From Plectrocnemia conspersa (lineage: Eukaryota > Arthropoda > Insecta > Trichoptera > Polycentropodidae), in the NCBI GenBank assembly GCA_009617715.1, contig VTFK01000344.1, positions 496,001 to 560,000 on the forward strand: a stretch of DNA of 64,000 nucleotides. Direction: 5' to 3'. Shown here piece after piece: positions 1 through 59,669 of this stretch. Positions within the stretch are counted from its first letter, which is position 1; each line of letters opens with the position of its first letter. Both the position numbers and the translations under genes were made by a program. The notes beneath the pieces were generated by a model. That model ran no database searches, was not told the DNA's origin, and saw nothing but the letters and a program-made list of their open reading frames with translations.

Positions 1-414
1 AACTAGGATACAGATACGGATACGTTCTGTACTCCCTATTGTAAATATATTTTCCTGAATCCTCTCCAATAAAAAGAAGTACTTTGTTGTGCTCAGACAA
101 TGAAGCGATATTTGAGGACGCTTTGAACTAGCGTATCGTATGCAATGCAAATCGTCAATCAATTGTTAAAGCTAACAAGACCATTCGAGAAACCGAAGTT
201 TGTTCACGAAGAAGTTCATGACAAACATTGACAAATGCTTTTTGAAAATTGATATAGACTACAATCTTCACGAGTCTGGAAACGATGAAGTTTTATGCGA
301 GGACACTGACAATAAATAATTTTTATTTTTATGTTCTAATTGTTACAATAAATTTGTATTTTTCAGTGAAGTTATATTTTCACCAGTATATTCAAACCAC
401 TTCTGATATAAGAG

Positions 415-740
415 CATTGGACAAAGTATACTCAAATCGAAATTTTATAAATATGAGGGCGCAAAAACAATTATCGCTTCTCAGAAGTCAAAAATTCACA
501 TCAAAAGCAATAAAATCGTGCCGTTAGCATTGCAGTGGAAATGCTTGATTATTTAACATTCATAGTTCTTTTGGACTATAACAATATTACGACCAATAAT
601 AAGAGAGAAACGAATGAAGCATATCTAAACCGAATTATGATCAATAGGGGAGTACAAAAAACAATTATCACTTTTCAGAAGTTAAAAATCCACGTCAAAA
701 GCAATAAAACCATGCCGTCGCAGTGGGAACCGACTTAGTA
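415..740 (+). repeat. Two partial copies of the fold-back family (module D)
   Basis: Two direct copies about 200 bases apart (roughly 422-537 and 627-733) share AACAATTATC, CAGAAGTCAAAAAT-like and AAAAGCAATAAAA. These are arm sequences of the palindromic module seen complete at 48777-48961. Confidence 0.7.
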
Positions 741-11328: not shown

Positions 11329-11333
11329 ACAAA

Positions 11334-14300
11334 ATGGGGCCGATCAAGTGGTGGATGTGTTTATTGTTGTTTAGTTATGTAAAACCGTCAAATGAGTACA
11401 ACTGGAACTATATAACCATCAGAAACGAGACGGTTCCTGGTGAGCAAACAAAATATTTACAGATAGATGTCTTTAGCTTAATTTATTTAAGTAAGATTTT
11501 TTATATACACATTATATATCATCTATACTTTTGTGAATTTTTATTTCATAGCAACTGAAATTTGATATATGTATTTTTTATGATAAATCACAATACAAAT
11601 TTACTAATTTTACAAAATATTGTGTGAACGATATATATTTTTAATTTCCGTTGTTAGTTCAATTATTAAGATAAAAATAAGATAAAATAATAATTAAAAA
11701 TCAATAATCCTTTTCAATTATTCTAGATTATATGGCCTTTCCGATTAATTATGATCCCCTATGCCCAGGTTTGTACTTCTATATACTTTTTGATAGGTTA
11801 TAATATATAATAAGTTATAATATAAGTAGTGAGTTAACAGTAATTTACTTGTATTATGAGTTTCTTACGTTTCTTATATTATTGCGTTCAACTTGTTTTG
11901 GATTCTGGAGACTGTTCTTTTATAACCGTCTTTGATGACTGATTCGACAATAGCATTCAGTTTTTTTCGGATAGTTTATGAAATCAAGATACTTGTAATT
12001 TGATTTATGTACAGAAACAAAATCAAAGGATTGTTATTCGTTGAAATAAATTAAACTTAAAAAAACTGATTTTCTTTGTACAACATTGATATATTATATT
12101 TTTTTGTTAAATTTAAAGGTATTGGTGAAGAATGTGATTCTTGCTGCCAATCCCAAGAACAAAGAAATGTTATTTGTTATAATAGCAAATGTCAAGTTTG
12201 TTATGAAGATAATTGGAGATGCAGGTAAAAAATAATTTATATTTGTCTAAAGATTTTTTTTCGCATTATAAAAATAATACGAGATATGTTTAATTAACTA
12301 TTATTTTTATTTATTTATATGATCTTATCCTAAACATTAGTTTAAAGAAATTACAAATAAGATATCTGTAAAACAACAATCTCTGCAATTTTAGACTGTT
12401 TATTTAATTTTTATACAAACATCTCATATTTACAAGATTTTATTTTATCTTAAACATTTTATTGTAAGAGTTTAAATGCATTAAGATAAAAATTTGAGAG
12501 CAACATATCTTCCGTATATAAATAAGTAAAACAGAAAGTCAAGAATTAGCAACTCGATAACCTTAAATTATTCTAAAAAGTATTCTACGAAAGAATATTA
12601 TTTCAAGTACCTACTTGTAATGAACAAATGGTATTTATTATTAAAAAACATAATTTAATAATTACATATAATAAATAAAATAACTAGTATATCGAGTGAG
12701 TCACAAGGCTTAAATTACTGAATAATTATAAAGATGTGTGCAAAGGATGACCCAAGAAGGAATAAAGAAGTGGAGATTAAGAAAAATCATGTTTATTGAT
12801 AGAATATTGTGTTAATATATGAATACCTAATATATTTTCACCTTATTAGATTTCAAGTTAATATAGGTTTAGACCATATATCCAGTATAAGCGATGCTAC
12901 TATGAAGTAAAGTTGCCAGATCTCACACTTGTTCAAAATATTTAACGGCCGTCTCAAACCCATTCAGATGACAGGTTGCAGCTTGTTTTAAAAAATTAGC
13001 TCATTGGTCGTAAAAGTCCAGTAAGAAACCAGGCTAATCCAATTACATCCCCAGACCACCGTAACTTGCCGTGGCAGCAATAAGTGGGCGAGCACCAAGT
13101 CTCCCTCACGGGAAAACAAGTACATTCATATTTAGAATATTACATTTATGAAAAAATCATGTTTGTGATCTGCAGGATTCAACATTTTAAGTTTATTGGT
13201 CAATGAGGTCCAAAAGGTTAGTGACCGCTGTTATAGTGTGTTAATATATAAATGCAGTTAAAGCTTGTGGTATGGACTACATTCGTTCCTTGAGACTGTT
13301 CGTAACCCGAAACAATTATTCGCAAAAGAATCAATGTAAAATGGTTTAATCCGTTCGACACCGAGAAAATGGTCCTTTATTACAGAACTTCGTGTTGAAA
13401 TCATATAAAAAACAATAAAAATTAATAGTTTTAACTAAGCAGGAATTGTAAGTAACAAAAAAAAATACAAAATAAACTATTTTTTTATTTCAACTCACAA
13501 AAAAGAAAAATTAAACACTGAAAGAGGACTCTTCTTTGATGAAATCGTTTTCTGTCTCATTAAAAATCTCTTCAATTAGATCAGATTCTTCTTGCATTTT
13601 ATAATTCTGCAAAATAATAAATGGCATTATCATTGAACATGTATGTGTAGAAGTGAATTGACAAAGACCTATCTTTCCATGAAAATTTGCGCCACGCAAC
13701 ATTTCGTTTCGAACAAGAAATATCCTCTCTTTATTCATCAGTCTCTGAAGAAAGTATTTCCTCAGTCACCGTATTTTGCTGCTAATTATGAATCTGTTCC
13801 AGTTATCACTGCTGTGGTTCTAAACCTATAGACCAATATCATCTACAATAGTCACAGACTTAGTCACCCTCAGTGTCAGATATGCAGTAAGGCCACAATT
13901 TACTCCAGGCTGACTTCATAATTATGTGAGTCACTTGCCTCCTGAACTTAAGGCATATATTAAAATGTTTTTTTTTTCCATTATTTTATGAGTGTTAATT
14001 ATGTGTCAAAGGTCACTACAAAAACTATAATGCTTTGATGTAGAGTCTCCTAAATTTTATTAATGAAAGAAATTAAAGAAAAAAATGCAAGTCATTTAAT
14101 GAAATACTACAAATCACAATGAAATCTAAATATTAAAAAAAACAACCACTAACTGGCTAACTATTGCCCCCCCCCCCCTGAAAAAACTGAAATTTGGTCA
14201 ATAGGAATCAATATTATTAACTGATAGGGGCTAGTGAATTTATATACTGCTTAAAAATGTCTATGAAATTCAATTTGACAGTTGCGAAACGTCCATTTGC

Positions 14301-16572
14301 TGTCCAAACCTAAATGTAACCTAATGAAAGTTTTACAACTAATTATAGTTTTAGAATTTCATTAGGTCAACTCTAAAATACAAACTAAACCAACTCAACT
14401 TTCAGGGTAAAATTGGCGACAGAAGAAGTACAAACAGACGTCGCATCTCACATATTGCTCCATAGTTTGTCTAATAATAAATAAATAATATCATAACTAT
14501 CCTTACCAATATTACTACGGACTTATAATATGGGAGTATTGGTCAAAGTATATTTAAACCGAATTTTGGTCAATAGGAGTCAATATTAATAACTGATAGG
14601 CACTAGTGAAATAATACGCCACTCTAAAATGTCTATGAAACTCAATTCTCCAGTTGTAAAATGTCCATTTGCTGTTCAAACCCAAACCTCACCAAATGAA
14701 AGTTCTAACACTAATTATAATTTTAGAACTTTCATTAAATCAAGATTAAAATACAAACTAAGCCAACTTATCTCTCAGTGGAAAATAAGTGGAAGAAGTA
14801 AGACAGATGTTCCATCATGCATTTTGCTCCATAGTTTGTTTTAAAAATATGATAGATATCCTTACCGTAATATAGTAGGTAGTGACTCTGATATGAGAGT
14901 ATTGGTCAAAGTATATTCAAACCAAATTTTGGTCAAAAGGAAGACGCTAAAACAATTATCACTTCTCAGAAGTCGCTCGGTAACGAGCGTTCCCACCGCG
15001 ACGGCGACTCACGATTTTATTGCTTTTGGCGTGGATGTTTGCCTTCTGAGAAGGGATAATTGTTTTTTGCGCTCTCCTATTGGTCAAAATTCGGTTTAGA
15101 TATGCTTCATTCGATTATCACTTATTGTAAGTCGTAATATTGCTATAAAAAGTCTTAATATGAATGCTAGATAACCGAGCATTTCTACTGCGCCGGCACG
15201 ATTTTATTGTTTTTGACGTGAATTCTAAACAGGAGCGTTATTTGTCAAAAATTGATGTCATTTAATGAAATACTATGAATCTTAATGAAATCGAAACATT
15301 AAAAAACGACCACTGATTGGCCAATTTTTGCCTCCCCTAAAAAAAGCTGACATAACGTCCCTGGCAGGAACTGCTTATCTAAATCTGTAGGATGAACAGG
15401 TCCATAACAAGAAAACAGTTTAGTGACAATTATTTTTATTGAAGGTATTTTCAATTATTGTCATTGTTTAGTTAAGATTTTTATTCCTTTTGTAACATTA
15501 GCTTCCTGCGAAACTGGGTACCTCTTATTACTCACCTTCTGAGATTGGCAGAGCATGTGCCTATTTGTGAACCAAAATTCTATCTGCAAACTGAGACATT
15601 TTTTTCGTTGGGATTTTTGTTTGTAACTAGAGTTGCTTGACAACCGAAGTTCCACTGTATTTTTAATGTATTCTCATTCGTCAAGAATATTCTAGGTTCA
15701 AATATTTATTACCTGTTGTTAACAAATACATATTTGTGTATCTATACTATTAAAAATATCCTATTTATTAATGATTCAATTCAATATAGATAAAAACTCA
15801 ATTTTCAGTGTCAAAACCCATTACGAATTTGCAAGACTCAAAGATGGCATTGCAATTATCCTAGTTTTTCCTATACATTAATGATATTACAAAATATCTT
15901 TAAACATATTGATTTATTCTTGCTAATGTAACTAATCCTAAAACATTTAAATGAAAATTATTACAGCTCACACGTGCAAAACCAAAACTTATTATTAACG
16001 GCTACTCAAATAGCAATGTCGGCCGCTTTAATTCTTGGTATTGTGACAATATTCGCACTCTTCTGGAAAATTTGCGCAGGAAACAATCAAACGTAAAACT
16101 CTACTATTTTATATTTATTTTGTACTACTTTATTCTAATTTTAATTAAAACAAATTTACTAGTATATTTTCAAGACGACATAACCGACCAGGAGAACGAA
16201 ACAGCACGAGAAGTGGAAGATCAGTAGATGCGTTACAACAAATTGTGTCCGAGAGACTACGAGATGCCCCACCTCCATACAGCCGATCGATTCTACCACC
16301 TCCTGGAGACACTCCTCCTCCATACATTGCATTACCAAGTCCGGGCAATGTCAATCTCTGTTTTGTAAGTATCGGTATGCATGTATATTAAATATATAAT
16401 CATTTATTTATTTCGATTGTGCTTCTCACAGGATCCTGACTATAATGCAGCACCGCCTAGCTATAATACAATAGCGACTCAACCGACTCCAGTGACGGAA
16501 AATGAAAGTGATAAAACGGATACTGAAACTAATGAAAACTTACCAGCTGTTGAAAGAACATTGCATATGTAG
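11334..16572 (+). CDS. Type I single-pass membrane protein with Cys-rich ectodomain and three PPxY motifs, six exons
   Basis: Exons 11334-11439, 11727-11768, 12119-12224, 15967-16092, 16175-16364 and 16432-16572 join in consistent phase into 236 codons without a stop. Residues 1-20 look like a signal peptide. Asn31 is an N-glycosylation sequon. Eight cysteines (48, 55, 58, 59, 69, 74, 77, 84) could form four disulfides. Residues about 99-118 are a transmembrane helix followed by Lys. The cytoplasmic tail is basic and then carries PPPY at 159-162, PPPY at 174-177 and PPSY at 198-201, with an acidic Thr-rich end. PPxY motifs bind WW domains, so an adaptor for Nedd4-type ubiquitin ligases is a reasonable inference. 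The architecture resembles WBP1/VOPP1 or Shisa proteins, but I cannot assign a family. A good acceptor sits at 11327-11328, five bases before the ATG, so a 5' UTR exon probably lies upstream. Confidence 0.85.
14080..15350. repeat. Modular fold-back family cluster inside intron 3 of the PPxY gene
   Basis: Module A (14080-14178, ending in a 12-base C tract) is followed by module C twice (about 14240-14470 and 14600-14835), a palindromic module D at 14925-15095, a partial inverted D near 15195-15240 and another A at 15250-15345. Each module is recognised by its copies elsewhere, for example CCTAATGAAAGTT and AGCAATAAAATC-type arms. Confidence 0.75.
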
Positions 16573-18400: not shown

Positions 18401-18518
18401 CATTTCATACCGCTAATGATTATATTTTCTTCTTATTGCATGGCTTATATATTATATGTACACCTCGTGCTTACAATATCCATATAAATAAGATAAGATA
18501 AATCAAGACCGATGATTA

Positions 18519-24400: not shown

Positions 24401-27400
24401 AATAATATGTGTAAAATAAATTAACGAAATTTAATAATATAATATAAGTGTTAAAATAAATTATTAAAACATACTAATACAATAAAAGTAGTAAAATAAA
24501 TAAAGCGATTTTTCCAAAAAATGAATATATGGAAAGAATATTAATTATGGAAAAATACGTGAAATTAACTTATTCCCGTAAGAATACTAACAATGTATAA
24601 ATTAACTCGCTACTCACTAATCCAAAAAGCTCGGCAACTAAAGGGTTAATACCATTATTTTAAAGATCCTCGTTTCAGTTCAGTTTGTACTATTACGCGG
24701 TTTATTTTTATATTTAAGGTAAATATGTCAAACAAACTGTCGATTACAACATAAAATTATAGCAGTATTTGATTAGATAATAGAATATAAAGGATGCTCT
24801 AAAATCAGGACGACACACGTTAAATCAGATATTATGCAAGTCATTGAAGATTCATCAAAGAGACTTGCTCCTCCAAGGCATTTAAAACGCATTGGTAAAG
24901 ATATTTGAACACATGTGATTAAGTAATGTGAATTTGTACTCGCGGTTCTTTATTATTAAGACAGAAAACCCATAAGGGGGGGGGGGGGCAAAAATTGGGC
25001 AGTCAGTGATCGTTTTTTTAATATTTCTATTACATTAAAATTTATAGTATTCCATTAAATGACTTATGTACATTTTTCTGGCCAAATTTAAAGGAAGGCA
25101 AATCCCCCCCCCCCCTTTTTTTTGCAACAGATAATTCAATCCCAAATTGCATTGTCTCTAATCGTACGAGTCTCTTTTAGCGACACAGATCATTCTATAT
25201 TATCCATGCCTCCAAAACACCCTTTTTAACCCTTTGAACGCGTTATTCAAAAATATAATTTTATTGTTTTTTTTTTGGAAAATGCAAATTTTACCTTGAT
25301 ACTGTGTTTAAATGTTCTGATTTTTTAATTTTTATTCATTTAAAATGATATTTTATGTTTATTCACAAAAAAAAGCTTTTTCTTGAAAAGCATTTTTTTT
25401 ACTGATTTTTGCGTAAAGAGATAAAAAAATCAATTGGACGACTTTTAGTCGCTTTCCGCGTTCAAAGGGTTAAGTCCAAATCCTGGAAACAATCGCCAGA
25501 ATACTTCAATTTACTCTCAAAACAACAAACAATAACGGCAGTTAGCTTTGCGAAATAAATTATTACCAGTTAAATTCACTCTGTTATTATTTGACTCACC
25601 TTTGACGAAGATATAACAGTTTAGCAGTCATTAAACCCGATATTAGCCGCCATAATCGTAATCACATGTTCAATATTTATCGGTGAGTGAAATTTAATTT
25701 TCCTCATCTACATTACTCGTAAATTAAAATAAAATAATACTGACTTACATATCTTTTACTTCAGCCGTGTGCTGAAGGGTTAGATTTGTTTTGATAACTT
25801 TTTTTACCCATCAGATGGCATCAATAAGAAAAGGGGGAGTTTCACAGCGACACAACAATTTATTATTTTTTATGTGTTTATTTCAGTATGATTGAGATAG
25901 CTGAAGATGCATTTAGCATATGAAAATACATCTATGTTATTACAGCTCCAACTCAGTATGGTCTGTATGCTGATGAAAGGTAAGTAGAATAAGCGACCCA
26001 TGACTTTTGTAATTCAACTATTCGCCGAGGTCCCCCGGGCGAGGTTGTTGCGCCTCTGCGAAACAGTAAAACGCGAGGTTAACTCTTTAACCGCTTCCAG
26101 AGCCGAGCTGATGTCCGCCAACGGAAGGTCGACGAACGAGCCAAGTGATGAACTCTGGCGCTCGTCGTCACGCGCCATGTGTCGCATCGTCATGTCGTCT
26201 TCGGATTCGGATCTATCGAACGACGGCGAGGTTGTGGACCGCGGAAGGCTATCGACACCGAGGAAGAGGAGGAGGTGGCAGGGTTGATCGGCGAGATAAA
26301 TCTCGCGTGCGATGACATAATAGTTCAAGGTCGGCCATTTCACTCGGCGCCGCGTTTAAATGGAAATCCGAAGAGGTTCCGCGAAGGCCGCGGACGGCCA
26401 GGGAGCGGTCGTCAACCCGAAGCCGACTACTAGAAACAAACGGCGAGATAGCACACAGGGTCTTTGAACAACGGAGAAGCGAGGAGCGTCAGTAAAAAAC
26501 GCAAATGGACACTCTCGAGTGAGTTTTGCATAGCGGAATATAGAAAAAACCCAGTGGAATACAGCATTTTCTAGCAGAGATGGTACATTCATAGGCAATT
26601 TATTAGATAAGATAATCTATAGTAGAAAGATTCCTACAAATCTTATACATTCCATTCTCATTGAGATACCTAAATAGTCCATTAAATCCTTTTTGTGAAA
26701 AATACTAAAAATTAGAGCGCTACATCATCATTAGTTCGCTCGTAATAAAATTCAAGAATCATCTTTCACTTAGCGCGCCTCAATTTATAAGCCATCATTA
26801 TTAAGAACGTTGAATGAGATGCTTGAGAAATTGAAATATACATATTCTTTTAATTTAAAGACTCAGCGTAAATTTCAGCGTACTACCAAACATACATATA
26901 TAGATATCAAAGCAGGGGATAGGGGAAAAAAGAAACGGGTGTGGGCTGGTGGTAGGTAGTAGGGGGGTGGAAAATAGCAGACAGCCCTAAATACGGCATT
27001 CGTATGCGAATTTCGTGCAAGACACTCTTTTAACACATGTTTACGGCTGAAGCTAGATCGTAAACTGGAACGAGATGTCCTCTCGGCGCCGCCGCTGTAG
27101 CTTCGGTGCCAGAGCTTAAAGCTCGTCGAAGCTCTTTTTGTGCCGCCGCCGAGGCAAGTGCCCCCGAAAGGTTTATTTTTAATTTGAACCGCATTCGTCG
27201 ATATGAGAGAGCGTTTTGCAACGGAGAACGAGGCGAATCTGCAATAAGGTCGATCGATAGAGGCACAAAGCCTCGGATACTGTTGATATTTGGCGCGTGA
27301 CTGTGTAAATCCAACATGCCACTCGACGGGTTGATCGATTACACTTTCAAGACGTGATTTAAAACGTAATAAATTCGGTGTAATAGAGACGCGATTGTAG

Positions 27401-38154: not shown

Positions 38155-39224
38155 ATTATTATCAAAACATTATACTTTCATATTATTCCCATGGGTTACT
38201 GTGAAGAATTTTCTTAGTATAAATAAATAAAAAATTTGCTACGAAAAATATAAGCCCATAAAATGTAATGCAAACATATTTGAGAAAGACACGATGAGAT
38301 GCTGATTTTCAGTTGAATATTTAATTTAAGCTAAATAGTTTTGTAGATTGAAACAATTTGAGAACACACGATGCGCTAAACTAACACCCTCCCTAAAAAA
38401 AAGAGAAAGGAAGAAAGCAAATAAGAATTCGGAATAGGGACAAAAGGCATTAGATAATATGTACATAGAGCAAACTGAAGATGTAGTCAACATAGTGGAT
38501 TTTGATTTAAATTAATAAATATAATTTGGCATTATTCATGCCTGATTTACAATAATATGATTCATAGTCAATGCTTGTATGTACACATCAGTGTTTTGAA
38601 AGCAAATATTGATTAGATCCGACAGTTTGTAACCTCTGAAAGGGAATCGCCGCGGGTGGCCCAGACGACAGTGATATCCCTAGCACATATACGAAGTCAA
38701 CAAACACCGCAGATGTTACCGCCGCGTATTAATATTTTTAATATACACAACCATCGCGTGTTTAATGAGCGAAAAATTTGTGTTTGTCCGATTTGGCGGC
38801 GAGACTTTCGTCTTCGACTGGGGTGGTCATCTTCACGAGAAGAAAAATAAATCGCGCAATATCGCTGCAATCCGGTAAAAGGGAGTCGGTCGCTTCGCGA
38901 AGGAGGCCGATAGAAAACCGTGATCGGCAAAGGTGAAACTAGGAAGTGAATATGCACAAAAGAGAAACTATAAGAAAGGCGAGCGTTACCGAACTCGACA
39001 GGAGAAATTATCTTTTACGAAAAGTGTTTCGCTCGAGAATCGAGCGTTGCGAGTGAACGAGTGACATAATAATATGAGCGCGCGAGAAATCGCCACCTGT
39101 GTCTAAATTTAAGAAAGACAATGTTTTTGAAACAATGAGAACCGAAAAAAAATTATGAAATGGCAATATCGAACAATTCACAACTATAGTGAATAAAAAA
39201 AACATGGACGTCATTCGGCTTTTA

Positions 39225-40400
39225 CCACGGGGAGGGGCAAAAATTGGACGGTCAGTGATAATATTTTTTTTATATTACGATTTCATTATGATTCATAGTA
39301 TTTTTAATTAAATGACATGCATTTTTTTCTGGACAAATTTAAGTTGACCCTGTTTACAATCCACGTCAAAAGCAATAAAATCGTGCCTTCGCGTAATCTA
39401 GCGTTCATAGTAAGACCTTTTATAACAATATTACGTCTTATAATAAGCGAGAATTTAATGAAGCACACCTAAACCGAATTTTAAACAATTGTCATTTCTC
39501 AGAAGACAAAAATTCACGTCAAAAGCAATAAAATCGTGCTATTGCCGTTGCGGTGGGTCTGTTGTTTGTTTGTTTGTTGTTTACGCGCACTCCTATTGAC
39601 CAAAATTCGGTTTGAAAATACTTTGACCAATCATATTAAAAGTCTGTAGTAATATTGGTTAGGATAGCTATCATATTCTAAAACTATAATAAATTTTAAA
39701 ACTTTTAAAATAGGTCAAGTTGAGTTTTGCTTAATTCGCGTAGGTTAGGTTTTGGTTTAAACAGCAATTGCACGCTTCGCAACAGTTAAATTGAATTTTA
39801 TATGTTTGTACTTTTTCTTTCACTTATTTTCCCTGAGAGATGAGTTGGCTTAGTTTATATTTTGAGCTTGACCTAAGTTCTAAAACATTCATTAGATCAA
39901 GTCAGACCTAATAAAAATTCTAAAACTATTTAATTCGTGTAGGTTAGGTTTGGGTTTGAACAACAAATGGTTCTAAAACATTCATTATTTGGATTAAGAA
40001 ATTTTTAAAACTATAATTATTTTCAGAAAAATGTATTTAGAAATGTATATCTCTGGTGAACATATAACATTTACACATCGCATGTAAATAAATAATGATT
40101 ATATGCAAACGTACAGTTGAAAGATAAATGATATTTTCACCAGTAAATTTACCGGTGAAAATGTATTCCGATATGATTTCACTGAAATGGCGTATTTAAA
40201 AATATTTTTTCGGGATAGATTCGAGACTATTTTTATTAAGATTTTATTTTAGGTATAACCCAAGAATTTCTGGTTTATAATCAGGAACGTCATTCCAGCT
40301 TTTGCATGTGTGTGTGTGGGGGGGGGGGGTAGCGGTCGATTTCATTAAGATTCATAGTATTTCATTAAATTACATACATTTTTCTGCTCAGATTCAATAG
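39225..40400. repeat. Modular fold-back family, copy in inverted order
   Basis: The order is A (39230-39350), D (39360-39640), C (39640-40000, with GTAGGTTAGGTTTGGGTTTG), B (40030-40210) and A (40318-40400, starting with 12 G). Orientation is opposite to the copy at 48180. Confidence 0.7.
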
Positions 40401-42284: not shown

Positions 42285-42358
42285 TAATTTAAATAAATAA
42301 CATTAAAAATTTATTCAATTTCACTCGATCCTACTTCATCGTAGAGGAAACATAAATA

Positions 42359-44139: not shown

Positions 44140-44780
44140 CTTACAATAAGTGAGAATTAAGCCCTTTTTACAATATTACAATTTTCAAGAATTGAGAATC
44201 AAATGAAGCACATTTAAACCGAATTTTGATTAACAGAAGAAGGCAAAAACAATTATCATTCTCAGAAGTGAAAAATTCACATCAAAAGCAATAAAATCAC
44301 GTCGGCACCATTATTGCACAGAATTGTTTTTTCGCATTCTCCTATTGGTCAAAATTCGGTTTAAATGTGCTTTATCTGATTCTCAATTATTGAAAATCGT
44401 AATATTGTAAAAAGTTTAGATATGCTAAATTCTTTAATATGAACGCTAGTTAATTCTAAAACTAATTCTAGTTTTAGAATTTTCATAAGGTAAGGTTTGG
44501 GTTTGAACAACAAATAGACGTTTCGCAACTGTCAAATTAAGTTTCATAGACATTAAAGAGCGGCATATAATTTTACTAGCGCCAATCAGTCAAATTATAT
44601 ATTTTCGCTAATAAAAATATATAGTATATATCTACTAGTATTTTAAAACACAGAAAAATACACACTGTAACATTTATACAGCGCATGTAAATAAACAATG
44701 ATAAGTATTGAAATCGTATAATTTTACTAGCACCTGCCATATAAATTATATTTTCACCTGTAAAAATATATATCTACTGG
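44140..44780. repeat. Modular fold-back family copy
   Basis: A palindromic D module spans about 44140-44420, with ATTTAAACCGAATTTTG on the left and CAAAATTCGGTTTAAATG on the right. Module C (GGTTTGGGTTTGAACAAC) and module B pieces follow, including a duplicated TTTTACTAGC segment at 44568 and 44718. Confidence 0.7.
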
Positions 44781-44799
44781 CAAAAATGTTAATAAAACA

Positions 44800-47640
44800 G
44801 AAATGAATTTAATATTATTTTGTTGTGACAACACTTGACATATTTTTTTAATTTAAAAATGCTGTCATTGAGGTCGTGTAGTACAAAAAATACTGTGGCA
44901 TGAAAATGGCATGAAATGCATTTTTCTGGCCAAATGCAAACATCTGGTTAAACCCATAGTGTATTTACATAAAATTAAACGATTAAAGAGAACGACGTGC
45001 AACACCATAAGACTTGTCAGTGTAGAAAACATATTTTCATATATAAAAAATAATCCAGATTCCAAAATAAATTGTTGAGCTTATGTTTATCTAATATTTT
45101 ATCCATAATCTGAAGCACTAGCCTCCGATCATTTTTGTAGAGACTGCGCGTGAAAACCTTGAACGTATGCATTCATCTACATCTGCAAGCACGGAGGTAG
45201 GAAATAAACGCACTTGAGGTCGCGCTAAATGCGGTAACGTACATAAATACTAAAAAAGCTCCGAGCTCATAAAGGGGGTTGAAGTAGTAGTGACGCGAGG
45301 GTGCCTGTCTGTACAAGGGGGGCGAGTCTCGAGATTAGAGTTTGAGCTCACCGGAGCGTCAGAAGAGATGAATTCATAGAGCCATCGCTTAATGCAGCAA
45401 CGAGATTAACGAGACGAACGACAAAGCCCTTGCCGTTTGCATTGCATTGCACCAAGAGTCATGACGATAACGCCATGACCCGCAACGTCTACTTTGTGGG
45501 CGTTTTAAATCAACAACGAAGGTTTTCGCAACATGCAACGACGCGAACAACGTGTTATTTGTTAAATGGGTTAAAAATGCATCACAGTATATATGTATTT
45601 ATAATATGTACGATGTAGCAACGTATCAATTCTACAGCAACAATGGATCGCAGCCGAGATCTTGTTAACGTGATGGATTACAGATTAGAATAGATGGATG
45701 GATCTAGCGAAGAATACCTCCGGTTCTTCAATAGCGACATTAAAGCATGACAAATGATTGCGGCTACAATGAGATTGATCAATCATTTGCATCGATACTC
45801 ATACTACAATAACTTTGAATAATTTCGGTTTGTTGGCGCGTTCAAAATTCATCGTTAACTTTTGCGGTAGTTACGTCACAATGAAGCATATACACGTTCC
45901 ACTCGAACCGATCTGTCCGGCGAGGTTACCGAAGCCGATTCGCTAACGTTTGCATTGGGCTTTGTATGAAATTATCATTTCCTAGGTTACCCAATAATAA
46001 CAGCGACCGTTCCGCGTTCGCTCGGTATGCGGCGAGGCAAGGGCGACTCGCTAACGGCCGAGGGAGGTCGCAACACTAGCACCGGCTATCCGAGCTAGGA
46101 AGACAAAATCGCGACCTCAGATCGAGCGCTGTTACAAAAGGTGTCAAGAAGAAGTATAAAAGAGTTAGACGAAAAGGTCGCGCGAATAACAATGAAAAAC
46201 GTTTGTCTTACGCTCTGATTGTGGCGTGAAAAAGTAGCGTCATACATTGCACGGAGTGTGCCATAAAATCGCAGAAAATGTATACAAAGCTATCAAAGTA
46301 GTTTATTGCGAATAATCATGTTATTTTATTAATAACTATAGCTTTTCTCTATTCGCGTATCGTGTCGAGTCAGTTTCTTTTCAACGATTCGTTACAAATG
46401 ACAAACGATCTGCAGATCATGCAGCACTCAAAACGATCAAGTAATACATGGCACAGTTAAAACTCACCGATCTCGATCGAGTTTGAAATGTTACTGTTGA
46501 ATTTGGTAATGGCATCAATAATAAAACTTTTAAACGTATTTCAAACAGAGTAGAAGTTTCAGCAACCGATCGATAGTTGTTATTGTTTGTTTCTTCTCGC
46601 GTACGAAGTAAAACTATGTTAGGTTTTATCTTTTGCATACGTAGCATATATCGATTGCTTGAAGTGTAAAATTACTAACTTGTCAGGAGAAACAAAAAAC
46701 TTATTAGAGAACTTGAAAATAGGAAAATAAAACAATATCTTAAGTTTGTTTAATGTGGATTTCGATTAAAGGTACAATATGACACTGTTAAGTCATTTTC
46801 ACCCAGAAGCGGAGTTAGCAAATATGTGTTTTTACTATGATTCAACTTTGTTCATTGCTTAATATATATAAACAGTTATATATAAAATTTAATGCTACGA
46901 AAATTTTACCTGTTAAAAACCGATTGTTTTAGGTAAGCTCATATTGTAATGTGCGTGTTCATTACACCCGTACAAAGCGATGACGCGTTCACAGTTCGCA
47001 ATCTGTTTCGTGAAAACTTACTCGATGCTTTGAAAATAGTCGTAGTAGACCGGTTCGCAAAATCTATTAACGCGTGTTTACATTATTATGGGACACACTG
47101 TGTGTATAGTACGTGCGACCGAATCCGGCCAGCCTTGAACGCGAATATAATTTTGCACGGAGCAACGCCGACCAGCTAAGTCTTCAGGGTTCCGCGACCA
47201 CGGTCAAACGGGTTCGTCGCACTCCCTCCCGCTCCCTCTCGCGGGAGGTGTACCTACTCGACCGCCGCGAATAGATCGAATTTCGACGATAATAGGGTTT
47301 AAAAAGTGGCGAACACGTCAAAGAGCGACCGAGGCCAGTTACGAACGCCACACACACACCAGGGCCGCATGTTCGGGCACCACCTATTAACCTTGCCGCG
47401 ATTTACTTCTAAAATTACCGACAAATTCGTGTGACGCACACGTTCCGCGAAATTTGAACAAGCGTAGGGTTCAATTCGAACACAGCAAACAAACGTACAC
47501 GTGTATGATGATTAACGATTGAAGTCATATTAACATATTACACCATAAAGCAGTGAATCTGTAAGAAAAACTCTCGTACGGTGAGCTCCGGCGTCATGAA
47601 ATATGCACAGCTTACTATATAAATGCAACTATATTCCGTT
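44800..47640. other. Intergenic, GC-richer in part, no supported gene
   Basis: Patches at 45120-45480, 45890-46150 and 46960-47480 are CpG-rich and may be regulatory or hold untranslated exons. A minus-strand donor (GATCG before GTGAGTTT) lies at 46462-46468. No protein is recognisable. Confidence 0.3.
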
Positions 47641-47648
47641 TATTTTAA

Positions 47649-47887
47649 CAGAGTCACTTTGAGGTCAATCCATTTCGTCATTATTCATAAATGAAAAATA
47701 GTTGGTGTATTTTGTTATGTTTAAATAGTGAGTTATAAGCTATTAAAATCAATCATTCAACAGTCGTTATCATTTACGTAGCGACGTCCGTGCGCTGCGA
47801 ATGTCGGAATAACTTTCTTCGACGCAAGCGGTCCAATGAAATAACGTTGTGAAATTAAATAAAAAAATAAGCCTCAAAGTGACTCTG
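47649..47887. mobile_element. MITE with 16-base perfect inverted repeats
   Basis: CAGAGTCACTTTGAGG at the left is matched by CCTCAAAGTGACTCTG at the right. The flanks are TTAA and TTGA, suggesting a TTAA-targeting element with one decayed flank. It is 239 bases long, with a GC-richer middle. Confidence 0.7.
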
Positions 47888-48179
47888 TTGAAAGAAACGA
47901 AATATTCAATTCATATCGTCATTTCCAATATGAGCGAATTGAAAAATTCAAAATTGGTATAACATACGCATACATATACAGTGGGTTAATTTATCTAAAT
48001 AAATGTAACTTGAGGTGTAACACTACTAGATTATTTTCAACTACTCAAATATCGAATACTAATTGATATTAATATATTTGTAAATACATGTCATAAAAAC
48101 AATATATTTTTTTTTAAAATCTTCCGTTGTAAGCTGACAATCGTAAACCCAATGCGTTATAATCAGGGACAACATTTAA

Positions 48180-49090
48180 GGGGGTAAGGGGGGGGCACCT
48201 TGAATTTGGCCAGAAAAATGCATGTCATTTAAATAATTAAATCGGAGTATTAAAAAACGACCACTAACTAACCATCTTTTGCCCCCCATTTATCTCGAAA
48301 ATAATTTTGAAATACGTCATTTCAGTGAAATAATATCGGAATTCTTTTTCACCAGTAGATATATATTTTTACCAGTGAAAATATAATTTATCCTGCAGGT
48401 GCTATATACATGTTAATGTGAATACGTATTTTCACTAGTTAAGTCCAAATACATTGTTACTAATAGATATATATTTCTACTAGCAAAAATATATTTCAAC
48501 TGATTAGCGCTAGTGAAATTATTACTGCTCTAAAATATGATAGTTACGAAACGAACATTTACTGTTCAAACCCAAAACTAACCTTAACTTGACTTTAATG
48601 AAAGTTCTAAAACTAATTATAGTTTAAGAACTTTCATTAGGTCAAGTCGAAAATACAAACTAAGACAAGTCATCCTAAAAGAAAATAAGCGGAAGAAGTA
48701 CATCGACAGACGTCGAGTCTCACATATTGCTCCATAGTTTGTTTTCAAAATATGATATAATAGTCAAAGTGTAATCAAACCGAATTTCGTTCAATAGGTG
48801 AGCGCAAAAATAATTATCACTCCTCAGAAGTAAAAAATTCACGTCAAAAGCAATAAAATCGTGACGGCGACGGCACGATTTTATTGCTTTTGACGTAAAT
48901 TTTTGACTTCTAAGAAGGGATTATTGTTTTTTGCGCTCTCCTATTGGACAAAATTCGGTTTAGATGTGCTTCATTTGATTCTCACTTATTTAAAATCGTA
49001 ATATTGTAAAAAAAAAGTCGTAATATGAACCTAGCGTTCATATTATGTACATTTTTAGCGTTCATATTACGGCAAAAAATATAATTAATG
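48180..49090. repeat. Most complete copy of the modular fold-back family (A-B-C-D)
   Basis: Module A is at 48180-48290, B at 48300-48540 (repeated CACTAGT- and CCAGTGAAAATAT-type phrases), C at 48545-48725 and the palindrome D at 48777-48961 with flanking sequence to about 49090. There is no coding capacity. Confidence 0.8.
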
Positions 49091-49099
49091 AGATATAGG

Positions 49100-52000
49100 T
49101 TCTAGGTTCATATTACGATATTACGTTAAAATAAAAATAGCATATGCTCAGAATAAAAATATAGGACGATCATGTGAATTAAAAACATATATCATTCATA
49201 AATATAAATAGGCAATAAATAATTTATTTTAGAAATATATTATGAAGTATATCGCTCGCGCTAAAACTGTTGGGACAGGTTAGGTGAGCGAGCGAGCGTT
49301 GGTTAGAACATTGAACACCCCATGAATACGCAACGAATATATTATTATTATTTACGTAATTCCGCATGAGTAAGAAATAACTTATTCTGCGGTTACAATT
49401 TGATACATTAAAATTTGAATACGTATACATTTAAAAAATATGATAAATACACTAAAATATGTATTATTAAATTTTAAAAGAACTAATAAGAAAAAATAGA
49501 AGCATGTTAAATGAAATCAAAAATAATAATTATACATATAGTGATATGATATATATATGTATAATATGTATTATTTATTAACTTAATTTTATTTGATTAA
49601 TCCTATGCATGTTGCATTAATTCATTAAAAAAATATTTTTATTTTTTTAGTTGCATGTAGGACGCGAAGGAATTCAGAGCGACGAACGAAGCGGGAATAA
49701 CAACAGAGCGGCGACGGAGAGCACGCTTGGTTTGTTATGTTGACATCTGACAAACAATGTTGCGAGCCCAACCAATCAAGCTGGCACTAAAACATCTTGA
49801 TAATGATAATGAACTGTCGCCATGCGAATGACAGATCGACCAGTTGTACCAATCTTCAGTGTAACAGCAATAACAACACTATACGATAAAACTATTGTCA
49901 ACTAAAATGAAAGATTCCGACTATCTGTCATATTCTTACCATTTAATATAAATACTGACAACAAACATATTAAAATTCTGACCCGAAAAATACGAGCCCA
50001 AGAAATTTAATATTAAAAATAATAGAGCAGTAAGTGTTTCAAACTTTAAAGCAGTACAAATTTTAATTATATTACCATAATAAATTACTTAAAACTAAAC
50101 ATTATTCGTATTAATTTAAAAGAGATAAAAGATTCAATATCAGGCATTAAGAAAGTCCACTGCTGTTTTTTTTTTCATTATTTTTGTGACCATGAATGAC
50201 CGTTATTAAATACATATAGATAAGAATATTAATTTAGCAAAATAAAAAATGGATAATGCAGTTGTACATCGTATAAAAAAGTCACTATTTGCGTTGATGT
50301 AATTTTTGGTGTTTATAGGGATTAAAATATTTTACTACAAATGGAATTAAACACTGCCAATATGCGATTCAGGCATGACATTTCTGAGATCTAAAAACTA
50401 CTGTTCAATCATAAACTGGCGTAATAGCACAGACGTGAGCATCATCATCTCAAATTATACAATAATGAGTCATTAAAATCGAATTTGCATCACGATCAAA
50501 CGCTCGTGATGATGATTTATTTATATTTATTCATCAATCGTATATATTTATATATGGTTATAAATAAAATACTAATCATAGGTCAGACAACGTATATAAA
50601 TAAAAATTATTATAAATATAACACAAAATCGGTCGTTAGCGATGTTCATACTTTGCAAACGAAGATTATCGACGAAGGTCGCCCGATAGTGTATCGCGAG
50701 CGATAACGATTCTATGAATTTTTAAAGTATCCACACATTGATATAATTCACTTGTAGTACATCGACTGCAGAGATGAAGCTCAATATAGATTGCAGCCTC
50801 TCGCAACAATCCAGTCACGGGTGACCCCAAACGCTGTCATCGTTTCGATTGTAACTTTCATATTTTTGTACGTGGGACCCGCACAGCACGCTTCACATGG
50901 ACCGAAAAAAATGAGAATCTGTCTAGAAACGGAAACGCAGCAAAGACCGGCTGACGTGTGTGGATCATCATCATAATCGTTAGGAAAGTGACTGATGATT
51001 AAACGCATCTAATTTGGCACGCCCTCGATATATCAAGTCGAAAGAGAAAAACCCCTACGAGATAATCAATCAACGGGCGTATCTGAAGATTTGCGATTAA
51101 ACTTTCGCGGAATAAAAAATAAAGAGTTCATGCGGAGAAGCCTAATTCATAGATAATGTATCCAAGCTTAGAAAACGATTGCCGCACGTGTTATTTGAAA
51201 CATTTTATGTGTTTTAATGAGCAACAGGACATCAAGAATCTATTCAAATACAACGAGGAAGAAAAGTTTGATATAAATGATCGATAGAAAATGGTTCATA
51301 GTTGAGCTCCACGATCCAATGAAAAGCACGAGTTAGTCGATACGATCAGGAAGTTGAGTTGCAACACCGCTTTCTACTTGGATTCTGACAAGAGTCCAAC
51401 ACGATCCGATGCATATTCACATGTCAAAAGTCGACTTCTTCGGACACGTGAAACAATCGCAGAGCGTCACGGTCCACGGGCAGCAGCGGAGGCAAGTGAA
51501 GGGTTGATAGCCTCGGCGTTAACTGATGCAAAGACTGTTGTAGTCGAGAGTTGCATAATGCAACTGTTGCGTCGGCACACGTGCTCGGTCGGAGAGGGGC
51601 GCCGCCCACTTACGGCAGAAGAGGAGACCACTCGCGGGGTTTCACCATGTCCGATGATGAATCAGTGTCACGCCGGGATGAGCATGTGACCAGCCGAAAG
51701 ATGCACCAGTGCAGTGCGGCACGTGGACGCGTGCCGTTGACCCGGCGTGTTGCAACCGAATTAGCGCATTCACCCGGCGCCCGTGGAGCAGTTGTGACCG
51801 CGTGAAAAACACGCGACAAGTATTTACCTACCACCTACCCGATTGAACTTACTCAGTACAACGTTAATAATATTTTAGCACACCTGCCAAACTTGTTAAC
51901 GGCTCGTAAGAATCGGCTTGTGTTTTACGACGTGAAATTTAACTCAATGTGCATATGTATGCGATCGTGGTTAAATGTGGTGATCGAGGTTCGAATTCTG

Positions 52001-52480: not shown

Positions 52481-52489
52481 TTCTCATCT

Positions 52490-53060
52490 AGGAATGTCAT
52501 TTAGGGGAATTTAGCTAGAAAAAATGTCATTTAATGAAATACTATGAATTTTAATGAAAACGACCCTAGACTGGCCAACTTTTGCCCCTTTCCCTGGAAA
52601 CAGCTGAAATAACGTCCCAGATTCTAAACCAAAAATTCTCAGGTTATCCAGAAAATCCAGAAAATAATTGTTAAAATATATCCTTTCAGTGTAATCATAT
52701 CGGAATAAATTTCCACCGGTAAATACATATTTTCATCAGTGAAAATCTGCAGTAATATTTACATACGTATCATTATTTATTTACATGTTACGGTGAATGT
52801 GAATCTTTCAGTGAAGTTATATTACTCACTAGTGAAGTCCAAATACATTTTCACTAGTAGATACATATATGTATTATATTTCTACTAGCAAAAATATAAC
52901 TTAAATGCTGTTCAAAAATCTTTTTATGGAACTCAATTTGATTGACACCATTTGCTATTCAAACCCAAACCAAACCTAACCTAATAATAGTTCTAAAACT
53001 AATTATAGTTTTATTGTTATCGTTACCGAGCACGATTTTATTGCTTTTGAGATCTCTTCC
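52490..53060. repeat. Modular fold-back family, 3' truncated
   Basis: Module A (ATGTCATTTAATGAAATACT) is followed by B and C. The copy breaks off within D after CACGATTTTATTGCTTTTGA at about 53050, where an inverted copy of the 55 kb repeat begins. Confidence 0.65.
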
Positions 53061-53345
53061 TCCGGATTGAAATTCATCATATATGATGTAAATAATGGTA
53101 AAGTAAAGTAAGTTTCATCAAGAACATTTTCGAATATTTGTAATTGTTCTAAACTAAAGCTTCGTCTAAAATATTTTTATAAAATTTATATTTGATATTT
53201 TGACATGGATAACACTATTGGAACATAAGTACAGTATAAATAATAATGTATTACTGCAGAAATACACAAGATGTTCACAACGATATATTTTTAATTACAG
53301 ATGTTTGTTCGTAACATAAGAAATGTCTCTTCCTAAGCTGTTACA
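53050..53345 (-). repeat. Inverted copy of the 55.07-55.49 kb repeat
   Basis: GAGATCTCTTCCTCCGGATT through CTCTTCCTAAGC matches the reverse complement of 55070-55495, including AAGCTTCGTCTAAAAT and the palindrome TCATATATGATG. Confidence 0.75.
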
Positions 53346-54978: not shown

Positions 54979-55069
54979 CTCTTTGAACTCATATGTCGAG
55001 GTGAACCCGACATTTTTTTTTTAATAATTTAGAGCTGTTTTAATTTCTTTTTACTTCAAACATCAGGTC

Positions 55070-55495: not shown

Positions 55496-57139
55496 CAAGC
55501 GACAGTAAATTTAATAATTATTACTAAGTTTTAAAGCCAGATTAAAAAATAATAATCTCTAAAATATTAATATTTTAACAACTCAGGTGGTCAATTTTTT
55601 CACGGCGTACCGCTGCAGTATTTACAGCCCAATTGTATTATTTAATTATCTCTATATTATTCATAACAGACACAACCATAACAAATCATAGCCGACAAAC
55701 ACAACAACGTGAAAAAACACTTTGTAATTGCCGAAATTACAGAAATCGCTCATACTTCAGAGTTAAATTGTGCAGCTGTGATCTTTCTCAGTGTCTGCTA
55801 TTGATTTTTTCTCTCTTAACCTTTCCCTTACTGTGCCAAATAAATCCGTGCGTTACTGTGCTGTATAGTTTATAGTATATACACATGCTAAAATGAGTGA
55901 TTTCAAATCGGAATATTCATAAATATCGCTTTAATTATTCATAGTTGAGGTCAACATGTAATAATTTAAATTTAATTGCTGAAAATAGAAATGGCAGAAA
56001 TAGCCGAATAGATAGGCCCGAGAGCTATTGCTCTGCACCCGCACCAGACCCGGTCGGTGATTCGCTCGCTCGCGTGTTAAGCGACGAGAGCGAGTGAGAG
56101 ATAAGAGTGGCGTCCCGCACGCGTGACATTGCTAAATTCAAGCAATAAAATCGTTCCGTCGCCGTCGCATTGGAACGCTTACAATAAGTGAGCATCGGAT
56201 GAAGCACATCTAAACCGAATTTTGACCAATAGGAGAGCACAAAAAACAATTATGTCTTTTCAGAAGTCAAAAATCCACGTCAAAAGCAATAAAATCGTGC
56301 CGTCGCCGTCGCAGTACGCAGTGCGATATACGCAATAGATACGGGCTTCTTTAACCTTTCATTTACTGTGATGTACACTGAGTGTACATGTTCAATTAGG
56401 TGAATATATTATAAATATGCCAAATAATATTTTATTATTCCGCGATACACTTACTTATTAAAGTAGCAGTCAAATATTTTAAATATTTTTTTTGTGAAAA
56501 ATTATCAATTTCTGCATTTATGCAGAATAATTGCGATAATCGATGGATTTTTTTATGATGTAAATACATCAGTAACTTTTATATGTACATCATCACTGTA
56601 GGCATACAATCTTATAAATATGTAATTGTGCTGAGCTTCCACTGTCGGACGGGCTCCCTTCAAAATTGAAACGCTCTACGTTCAAATTGTTACTATATTA
56701 ATCGTATTGTTTTGTAGGTTGATTTGAAAACAAAAATATTTCATTTTTGTTTTGTTTGCTCGCTTGATTTCCAGTCCAAGGTAATGAATTATTTTGTTTT
56801 TGATTGGAGGCTTTGGCTGTCGACCAATGGAAAAATCAGCATTTAAATATAAAACAAAATAGCCGGTAGCAACGTGACTGTTGTTTATAAATTATTGTTT
56901 ACTTAATATACATATTCAGATTGCAAATTAACTAGTGCAATATAAATGAAGTAGGAATGTTTGAAAAAAAACGAGTTCTGTGATAGACTCTTCTCTACAA
57001 GTGATTATTATCACATTATAAGATCAACTGAACTAAATTTATGACATGACTTAAAAAGTATTTTTTTGTTGTATTTATTGATGTTGCTTTTAATATCAAA
57101 AAAACTCGTTTCAACCTCACCAAAAATATATAAAATAAT
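55496..57139. other. Intergenic with fold-back family copy at 56150-56330
   Basis: The D-module arms at 56150-56330 include AACCGAATTTTGACCAATAG and AAAAGCAATAAAATCGTGCC. TTAACCTTTC ends near 55816 and 56352 look like lone TTAA-type termini. A GC-rich repeat piece at 56055-56125 matches 830-880. No gene is seen. Confidence 0.5.
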
Positions 57140-57713: not shown

Positions 57714-58689
57714 GTGAGTAATTTGTATGGGAGAAGAATTCAGTATACCTGATGCGATATAGCGCAACTCCTTTCATTTTGTTTTCATGTTTGGACTGGA
57801 GAGATTTCAAACATTGTAATATAATACACAGGATGTGACAGAAGAACTATTCTTTTCGTAGTAGTTAAAATGTAATTTTCTGTTCAACAAGAGCACCTTA
57901 AAAAGAACGATGTAAACCTAAGATAAAATTCAATCGTATGGGACGATTCAATTCTCGCCATATGCATTCAATGGAAAACAGATAAAAGTAAATACTATTA
58001 ACTAAAATACATATAACAATAAAATATCAGTCAAGAATTTTATAATAAAGACATTTTTTAAAATGCTATTGATAGAATATGGTTATAATACCATTTATAA
58101 AACATGTATCAATATAATTTATGTGTGTTGAAAATTACTGTCACAAAACAGAAACTGCTGTTGAATTTCGTAGTCACCGCAATAAAAGTCTGAAAAGATG
58201 AACTGTTAAATGAAACGTTTGCCAGATAAACATCGGAAACGAAATTGGTGTCAATATAGTAAAAATATCTACATTAACCCTTTCAGATGTACTAGAAACA
58301 GTTTTTATCAATAAATTATAATATACTATAATATATGCATTTAAAATTTTATTTAACTTTTACTGGACATAAACTTTTTTCTTATGAATCCACTGCGGTC
58401 TAATTTATTTAATTACAAAAATACTTATTTATAATTTATTTAGCGTATACCTTATATTCGTTCCAGATGTTGGGACCACTACCAGAAAAAAAAAATACCA
58501 TAGAATGCAATGAGAAAAGAAAGAATGTTTCGCTCCTTGTAAATAATATTTAGTTTAATTGTTTACTATAATAATTCACACAACACCAATGGTTCTCAAC
58601 ATATTTTTAATCGCGCGGAATTGTGGTATGATATTTTTCGAAGCAATTATCAACATGAAAATATGATTTCGTCGTAGTAGGAACGCAAC

Positions 58690-59660
58690 GAAATCATAAC
58701 CGAGCGTTCCAACTGCGACGGCGCCGACACGATTTTATTGCTTTTGGCGTAAATTTTTGATTACTGAGAAGTGATAATTGTTTTTGCGCATTCTTATTGA
58801 CCAACATTCGATTTGAATACAATACTCATATTAAAAGTCTGTAATAATATCGGTAAGGAGAGCTATCATATTTTTAATACATAGTGTAATAAAAGTACAG
58901 ACAAACTATGGAGCAATATACGAGATGCGACATCTGTGGGTACATTTTTTTTTGCATATTTTCCCCTAAGAGAAATATTATGGACTTGAGCTAATTAAAA
59001 AATTTTTATTAGGTTAGGTTTGGGTTTGAACAAAAAATGGACGTTTCGCAACTGTCAAAATGTTTCATAGACATTTTAGAGCAATATATAGTTTCACTAG
59101 CGCCTATCAGTTAAATTATATGTTGGCTAGAAGTAATACATATCTATTGGTGAAAATGAATTTGGACTTCACTAGTGAAAATATAGAACTTTCATTAGGT
59201 TAGGTTTGGGTTTGAGCAGCAAATGACGGTTTCGCAACTGTTAAATTGAGTTTCATAGACATTTTAGAGCAGCATATAATTTTACTAGTGCCTATCAGTT
59301 TCGCAGTAGAAATATGTATCTACTGGTGAAAATGTATTATGACTTCACTAGTGAAAATATAACTTCTGAAAAATACACATTCACTGCAACATTCATACAT
59401 CGCAATTGAATAAATAATGATGAGTACGTAAATGTATTACTAGTTATGGAAAAGTTGAAATCATATAATTTTACTAGCACCTCTGCCATATAAATTATAT
59501 TTTCACTGGTAAAAATATGTATCTACCGGTGAAAATATATTCCGATATAATTTCACTGATATGACATATTTTAAAAAATATTTCGGGATAGTTTTTTTTT
59601 TTGAGGAATATTTCGACTTTGTTAAGATTCATGGTATTTCATTAAATGACATGCATTTTT
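58690..59660. repeat. Modular fold-back family copy, inverted order D-C-B-A
   Basis: Module D is at 58720-58860, C at about 58900-59060 and again at 59185-59260 (ATTAGGTTAGGTTTGGGTTT), B at 59090-59560 and A at 59620-59660 (GTATTTCATTAAATGACATG). Confidence 0.7.
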
Positions 59661-59669
59661 TTGGCCAAA

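What the first reader, a model, noticed from the sequence alone, without database searches (positions are those of the whole stretch)
48180..49090. Dispersed modular repeat family with fixed order A-B-C-D and no coding capacity
The same four modules recur at 14080-15350, 39225-40400, 44140-44780, 48180-49090, 52490-53060 and 58690-59660, in the same order or its exact reverse, with partial copies at 415-740, 24976 and 56150. Fixed order with variable truncation suggests one mobile unit of 1 kb or more, probably symmetric about D. I cannot match it to a known superfamily. It is the strongest candidate here for something undescribed.
Basis: seen in the sequence. Interest (0 to 1): 0.75.

Follow-up and report, generated by a model that had tools for sequence, protein, structure and literature searches.

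The report
Composite hAT transposon bounded by MITEs
The repeats are old, non-coding jumping DNA of a known class (hAT), built unusually: a tiny transposon sits at both ends in the same orientation and carries palindrome-rich passenger DNA along with it.

Summary
The repeat is real: nine places in the window (about 6.3 kb) carry it, and all six long copies have the order A-B-C-D. It is not symmetric about D. D is itself a palindrome, and module A returns at the right end in the same orientation (17 of 18 genome loci with an A after D). Copies from the window's own 393-Mb genome gave the termini: CAGGGACGTCATTT...AAATGACGTCCCTG with 8-bp target-site duplications (8/8, 8/8, 7/8; 3 of 10 copies with both A modules). 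These are hAT hallmarks. Module A also moves alone: one ~190-bp copy has its own duplication (7/8). Both A copies touch the same inner 8-mer, ATTCTAAA, as expected if one A insertion was duplicated around B-C-D and the block then moved by its outer ends, as a macrotransposon. The D core also sits inside a second hAT family. Shown: termini, duplications, direct A, shared 8-mer, D sharing. Inferred: the one-insertion origin and the transposase supplier; no partner transposase and no A-free E-B joint were found. New variant of a known kind; copies about 11-12% from consensus.

The parts
48164..49133 (+). copy c4 (the named finding): left terminus, A, B1, B2, C, D, extra palindrome; right A lost
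48164..48177 (+). left hAT-type terminus CAGGGACAACATTT; the 8 bases before it (GTTATAAT, 48156-48163) are the candidate left target-site duplication, with no right partner found
48204..48290 (+). module A body
48303..48540 (+). module B, two diverged half-units B1 and B2
48538..48742 (+). module C with hairpin at 48587-48647
48749..49015 (+). D core, near-palindrome (arms a and b)
49014..49133 (+). extra palindrome of the D-tail motif, only in this copy among the window copies
14070..15363 (+). copy c1; left A decayed, B-C repeated, D, E, right A
15222..15229 (+). ATTCTAAA at the inner junction between E and right A
15230..15363 (+). right module A of c1, ending ACGTCCCTG
39203..40392 (-). 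copy c2, with left A and right A (39203-39352)
44156..44938 (-). copy c3, truncated after D; A short
52489..53050 (+). copy c5; left terminus TAGGAATGTCATTT, A followed by ATTCTAAA (52621-52628), B, C, tip of D
58649..59669 (-). copy c6, with a second B-C unit; ends near the centre of D
357..724 (+). fragment p1: piece of B, then D arms in direct instead of inverted order
56140..56315 (-). fragment p2: D arm b flanked by the D-centre motif
24965..25115 (-). A without B, C or D nearby; termini decayed

Best explanation
The family is a non-autonomous hAT (class II, cut-and-paste) element of about 0.8-1.3 kb in an insect genome. Its two ends are two direct copies of one ~190-bp hAT MITE (module A). 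A supplies the outer termini CAGGGACGTCATTT / AAATGACGTCCCTG, and the passenger B-C-D-E lies between. A hAT transposase supplied elsewhere takes the left end of the left A and the right end of the right A, and moves the whole block with one outer 8-bp target-site duplication, i.e. as a macrotransposon. Both A copies most likely descend from one insertion of A that duplicated the 8-mer ATTCTAAA; a tandem duplication, re-replication or circle step then put A on both sides of the passenger. D is a 270-bp palindrome that is also the core of a second hAT family (X-D-Y), and it has been exchanged between the two. Variable truncation is decay, some of it at the palindrome. Shown: termini, duplications, direct A, one A moved alone, the ATTCTAAA junctions, D sharing. 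Inferred: single origin, duplication route, trans-mobilisation, D exchange by recombination.
For: 8-bp duplications exactly outside the CAGGG...CCCTG-type ends: L058 TGCCAGTC 8/8 (820 bp), L048 TATATTTT 8/8 (1174 bp), L060 7/8 (780 bp). The rate of identical random 8-mers is 7.5e-5. Right A in direct orientation in 17 of 18 loci with an A after D, among 39 loci fetched. A alone with duplication CATAAAGC/CATAAAGT, 192 bp (L116; 1 of 20 A places fetched). Of 41 aligned A 3' ends, 18 are followed by ATTCTAAA (0-2 mismatches) and 23 by unrelated bases (4-7 mismatches); of 12 A copies preceded by the E tail, 10 have ATTCTAAA within 1 mismatch; background 0.18%. X-D-Y: ends CAGGGCTTTTTT...AAAAAAGCACTG and duplication GTTTTAAT 8/8 in L062. 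D boundaries are sharp in both families, with mixed types L034 and L054. hAT dimerisation domains abound: 150 matches scored of 1748 candidates. Maize Ac composite insertions form and are described as having the structure of a macrotransposon (PMC4270019, passages).
Against: Only 3 of the 10 copies with both A modules mapped show the duplication. L040 has recognisable ends and none; in the other 6 I did not recognise both ends (L055 has an 8/8 8-mer pair, but not next to a CAGGG end). L063 has an A after D in the opposite orientation, about 600 bp off and next to an inverted B, probably another copy. L113 looks like a lone A with both ends but no duplication (3 of 8). No transposase gene with these termini was found among 30 fetched loci, which reach only about 1.5 kb to each side. 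The A-free E-B joint predicted for the ancestor was not found among the 40 best-scored of 1521 candidates: four nominally cross it, three fetched are E-A joints, the fourth adjoins an A match and was not fetched. Left and right A of one copy are not closest to each other. Other X-D-Y copies give weaker duplications: L054 6/8, L069 5/8, L067 2/8, none paired in L052, L057.
Confidence: 0.78

Rival explanations
1. Composite by two independent insertions: two A MITEs landed on either side of B-C-D-E by separate events, and the pair was then mobilised.
For: A moves alone (L116), so independent insertions happen.
Against: The inner 8-mers would then differ, but both are ATTCTAAA (18 of 41 A 3' ends and 10 of 12 E-preceded A copies).
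Confidence: 0.08
2. Non-autonomous rolling-circle element (Helentron/HINE or Helitron) with palindromes and no target-site duplication.
For: Palindromes, inverted subterminal TTGGCCAG pair in A, internal repeats; similar anatomy is described for HINEs (PMC4067079 and PMC7492417, passages).
Against: 8-bp duplications and CAGGG termini; passages in those papers report no target-site duplication for such elements.
Confidence: 0.02
3. LTR-type or TRIM element: direct terminal repeats A, with lone A copies as solo LTRs.
For: Direct repeats at both ends and a lone A.
Against: Left and right A of one copy are 0.74 and 0.69 identical, against 0.82 between the right A of two copies (two copies only); no TG...CA ends; duplications are 8 bp next to CAGGG ends; the lone A has its own hAT termini. 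Primer-binding site and polypurine tract were not tested.
Confidence: 0.02
4. An ordinary non-autonomous hAT family whose ancestor happened to have long, partly duplicated subterminal regions (A at both ends), with lone A a later internal-deletion product rather than the founder.
For: Deletion derivatives are the usual source of MITEs (general knowledge); A carries both ends; the A-free E-B joint was not found.
Against: Reducing A-ATTCTAAA-BCDE-ATTCTAAA-A to one A would need recombination between the two A copies; it does not by itself explain the 8-mer at both inner edges.
Confidence: 0.1

Closest known systems
hAT superfamily MITEs / non-autonomous hAT elements
   Same: CAGGG-type terminal inverted repeats, 8-bp target-site duplications, no coding capacity
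   Different: ends are two direct copies of one smaller MITE; long internal palindrome; no matching autonomous element found in the 30 loci looked at
Maize Ac/fAc composite insertions and macrotransposons (PMC4270019, passages read)
   Same: hAT termini of two elements flank carried DNA, outer 8-bp duplication, described as able to move as a block
   Different: those are recent events of kilobases with a known Ac; this is a ~1-kb old dispersed family in an insect
Coral CMITE tandem arrays and CMITE-IN (PMC2872659, passages read)
   Same: a MITE insertion creates a new mobile unit; MITE plus spacer can be tandemly repeated
   Different: piggyBac-type with TTAA duplications
gadMor-hAT-1784 of Atlantic cod (PMC12368964, passages read)
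   Same: hAT-derived MITE with tandem and inverted internal repeats, no ORF
   Different: its inverted repeats are terminal (~600 bp); here the palindrome is internal and the terminal repeats are direct
Foldback4 of Drosophila (PMC2955051, passages read)
   Same: modules, palindromes, variable internal repeats and truncation, no ORF
   Different: palindromes at the extremities; here at an internal module

Membership tests
hAT superfamily | 8-bp target-site duplication | tested here: met
   L058 8/8, L048 8/8, L060 7/8; 3 of 10 copies with both A modules. Definition: PMC2874221 passage
hAT superfamily | short terminal inverted repeats (5-27 bp), CAGGG type | tested here: met
   CAGGGACGTCATTT / AAATGACGTCCCTG: L058 with 1 mismatch in all, L048 and L060 with 1 at the left and 3 at the right end; the CAGGG motif as hAT-typical is recalled, not from a call
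hAT superfamily | autonomous partner with BED / DDE / hAT-dimerisation transposase and the same ends | tested here: inconclusive
   domain abundant in the genome, no matching ends in 30 loci of ~3.2 kb
hAT macrotransposon / composite insertion | two elements' termini move the DNA between them with one outer duplication | tested here: met
   A-BCDE-A blocks of 780-1174 bp with one outer 8-bp duplication (3 copies); A alone has its own (1 copy)
hAT macrotransposon / composite insertion | block moves under a hAT transposase | not testable with these tools
   needs a transposition assay
Helitron / Helentron (HINE) | no target-site duplication on insertion | tested here: not met
   8-bp duplications
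LTR retrotransposon / TRIM | terminal repeats identical at insertion, so left and right of one copy are closest | tested here: not met
   0.74 and 0.69 within copies against 0.82 between right repeats (two copies only)
LTR retrotransposon / TRIM | primer-binding site and polypurine tract | not tested
   not computed
Foldback element | long inverted repeats at the extremities | tested here: not met
   A after D is direct in 17 of 18 loci; the long inverted repeat D is internal

The most novel reading that the evidence does not exclude
A single MITE insertion turned palindromic DNA, which may never have been mobile on its own, into a dispersed family: the MITE was duplicated around its neighbour and the pair became a self-contained, high-copy macrotransposon. 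The palindromic core then served as an exchange cassette between two hAT families with different ends. This would be an animal, long-term evolutionary counterpart of the maize Ac composite insertions.
Probability: 0.55. Interest if true: 0.55.

Novelty: new variant of a known kind. Interest (0 to 1): 0.42.

Why it matters
It gives a route by which new transposon families arise without a new transposase: one MITE plus one duplication makes neighbouring DNA mobile. The ATTCTAAA signature at both inner junctions makes that history testable in any genome assembly. It also shows that an 'unclassifiable modular repeat' becomes an ordinary hAT element once the true termini are found, which bears on how unclassified repeats are annotated.

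Tried and rejected
Rejected: symmetry about D (right A is direct in 17 of 18 loci). LTR/TRIM. Rolling-circle HINE: my working idea, because window copies alone showed no duplication; overturned. A as a G-run-ended MITE (inverted-end alignment reached by 1, 44, 58, 55, 186 and 935 of 1000 shuffles in six copies): the G-run lies inside the CAGGG terminus. Window-only duplication test for c1, c2 and the lone A: no better than random pairs.

Led nowhere: exact-pattern scans of viral contigs (0 hits) and prokaryote genomes (0; 22 hits to an 18-mer in bacteria and archaea, taken as chance and not followed up); phage blastn (none); translated D arm (none); short-sequence search of papers (3 unrelated); one window frame as host clue (none). 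Searches of papers listed no paper whose title or start of abstract describes this family; they cover open-access papers only, and Repbase/Dfam could not be searched.

Selection to bear in mind: the 39 loci are the best-scored matches to the c4 query, so rich in D; the 20 A places are 20 of the 40 scored, whose query (15222-15364) itself begins with ATTCTAAA, though 36 of those 40 matches start at query base 17 or later. The E-end list was filtered for ATTCTAAA (at most 2 mismatches) and its B-start pattern contains the last three bases of the 8-mer; one search is the count without that filter. Rows: one of the 12 E-preceded rows (L118) looks spurious but is kept in the 12; palindromic double hits were reduced to the better strand; one search counts some D cores on both strands.

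Full report
WHAT WAS CHECKED. Repeats of this family cover nine places and about 6.3 kb of the 64 kb (interval sum). Iterated profile searches give the order A, B, C, (Ct), D in all six long copies, three on each strand; A is short in c3 and only the tip of D is left in c5. The 'exact reverse' is therefore strand only. None of the 17 stop-to-stop frames of 110 aa or more lies in a copy.

ANATOMY FROM THE WINDOW. B consists of two diverged half-units, B1 and B2. B1 units match across copies at 0.67-0.84, B2 units of c4, c5 and c6 at 0.79-0.85, and B1-B2 pairs are mostly 0.54-0.72; the B2 units of c2 and c3 are too decayed to fit either group. The duplication thus predates dispersal. D is a near-palindrome (-73.9 kcal/mol, z -14.9, 0 of 200 shuffles as good). 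Its b arms match across copies at 0.82-0.90, while a-b pairs within a copy are 0.58-0.78, so the arms are not being homogenised. The a arms are more ragged, 0.49-0.78 among themselves, and do not form a clean group. Module A occurs at the left of all six copies and again, in direct orientation, at the right of two (15230-15363 and 39203-39352). The element is thus A-B-C-D-E-A and not symmetric about D.

The window is part of a 393-Mb assembly in 959 contigs. The host is an insect by inference: rdx/SPOP exons with best hits in moth, mosquito and bee, and a CpG observed/expected of 1.33. The c4 query gave 134 matching pieces from 40 scored of 8832 first-look candidates; module A gave 40 scored of 2662. 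Copy number is therefore at least in the tens, and probably thousands by inference. I fetched 39 loci. Among them 14 have a left A and 18 have an A after D: in 17 it is in direct orientation; in L063 it is inverted, about 600 bp from D and next to an inverted B, so probably another copy. Eight have A on both sides.

TERMINI. Five loci carry D inside another repeat, X-D-Y. Its ends read CAGGGCTTTTTT and AAAAAAGCCCTG in consensus; in L062 the right end is AAAAAAGCACTG and the 8-bp duplication GTTTTAAT stands on both sides. Elsewhere it is weaker: L054 6/8, L069 5/8, L067 2/8, and no end pair was found in L052 and L057. That led to the same kind of end on A: CAGGGACGTCATTT at the left and AAATGACGTCCCTG at the right. 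In three copies the eight bases outside the ends are duplicated: L058 TGCCAGTC (8/8), L048 TATATTTT (8/8), L060 GGTTTATT/GATTTATT (7/8). Ten copies had both A modules mapped. One of the other seven (L040) has recognisable ends but no duplication; in six I did not recognise both ends. Of 12 distinct end pairs found by the scan, the three with a duplication are the three whole elements; the other nine pair inner or unrelated ends. The finding's own copy begins at 48164 with CAGGGACAACATTT; its right end is lost.

A MOVES ALONE, AND A CARRIES THE HISTORY. Of 20 A places fetched as ~300-base stretches, 9 run on into B, and L116 is a complete 192-bp A with duplication CATAAAGC/CATAAAGT, 7/8. L113 also has both ends but no duplication. 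In a pass over all 63 A matches, 41 had an aligned 3' end: 18 are followed by ATTCTAAA (12 exact, 5 with one mismatch, 1 with two) and 23 by unrelated bases (4 to 7 mismatches), with none at 3. Of 12 A copies preceded by the E tail, 10 have the same ATTCTAAA (within one mismatch) just before A. The background is 0.18%. So left A touches ATTCTAAA-B and right A touches E-ATTCTAAA. An 8-bp duplication made by one A insertion into E-ATTCTAAA-B, followed by duplication of the block, gives exactly this; two separate A insertions would give two different 8-mers. Six further junctions agree, though they were picked by a query that contains the 8-mer. The predicted A-free E-B joint was not seen in the 40 best places of 1521 candidates. 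Four nominally cross it: three fetched are E-A joints, and the fourth (C51) starts where an A match ends and was taken as an A-B joint without fetching.

D AS A SHARED CASSETTE. The D core (about 270 bp) has sharp edges in both families...TGATAT|GAGAGTATTGG on the left, AATATTGT... on the right. L034 joins A-B-C-D to Y, and L054 combines X on the left with E-type sequence on the right. Exchange by recombination at the palindrome is inferred.

AGE. Copies diverge from majority consensus by 0.122 (D core, 81 rows, palindromes partly counted on both strands), 0.114 (C, 25 rows) and 0.106 (A, 37 rows). The family is old, which may explain why the window alone showed no duplication.

PARTNER. hAT dimerisation domains are common (150 matches scored of 1748 candidates). 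In 30 loci of about 3.2 kb, A-type sequence occurs in 6, not more than the density in the window (9 places in 64 kb) would give, and no locus has a matching pair of ends around a transposase. The supplier is unknown.

COMPARISON. hAT elements are defined in the passage read by short inverted repeats and heterogeneous 8-bp duplications (PMC2874221). Composite insertions with Ac termini, described as having the structure of a macrotransposon, are known in maize (PMC4270019). A MITE that founds a new mobile unit and tandem MITE arrays are known in corals (PMC2872659). Repeat-rich hAT MITEs are known in cod (PMC12368964). Modular foldback families are known in Drosophila (PMC2955051). Of all these papers only passages were read. 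The present family works like a hAT macrotransposon and meets the hAT tests that could be run. What differs is the combination: a high-copy family bounded by direct copies of one MITE, with an internal palindrome shared with another hAT family.

VERDICT. Real, and classifiable as a non-autonomous hAT; a new variant of a known kind. The one-insertion, composite origin is the interesting part and is inferred from a strong but indirect signature.

Noticed in passing
21643-22739 (-): Exons of a roadkill/SPOP (MATH-BTB) gene, up to 96% identical to a named insect protein; 7 of the 9 repeat places lie upstream of it on its strand.
   Followed up: partly
7633-8004 (+): Open frame that looks like a hAT-type (ZBED/SCAND3-like) transposase remnant; the likeness is recalled, Pfam gave no match.
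   Followed up: no
42358-42663 and 55180-55480: Two tandem duplications of 151 bp (99%) and 149 bp (100%), two copies each, much younger than the dispersed repeats.
   Followed up: no
53050-53348 and 55063-55480: Inverted paralogous segments that look like a coding exon with flanks; one starts exactly where repeat copy c5 ends.
   Followed up: partly
28924-29075, 47606-47698, 61909-62259: A second dispersed repeat family; its copy at 61947-62214 is a 75% inverted repeat.
   Followed up: no
49451-49651: Inverted repeat of about 200 bp, 66% identical arms, next to the named copy.
   Followed up: no
8001-20000: CpG observed/expected falls to 0.76-0.88, against 1.21-1.64 in the other 4-kb steps of the window.
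   Followed up: no
L052, L057, L062, L067, L069: Second non-autonomous hAT family (X-D-Y, 733 bp in L062) sharing the D palindrome.
   Followed up: partly
own genome, start of module B: 36 of the 40 best-scored places match the first ~44 bases of B (with ATTCTAAA) at 98-100%, far closer than the ~11% divergence elsewhere: a younger subfamily, or selection of the best of 1521 candidates.
   Followed up: no
357-724: The two D arms stand in direct instead of inverted order, as if one arm had been flipped.
   Followed up: no
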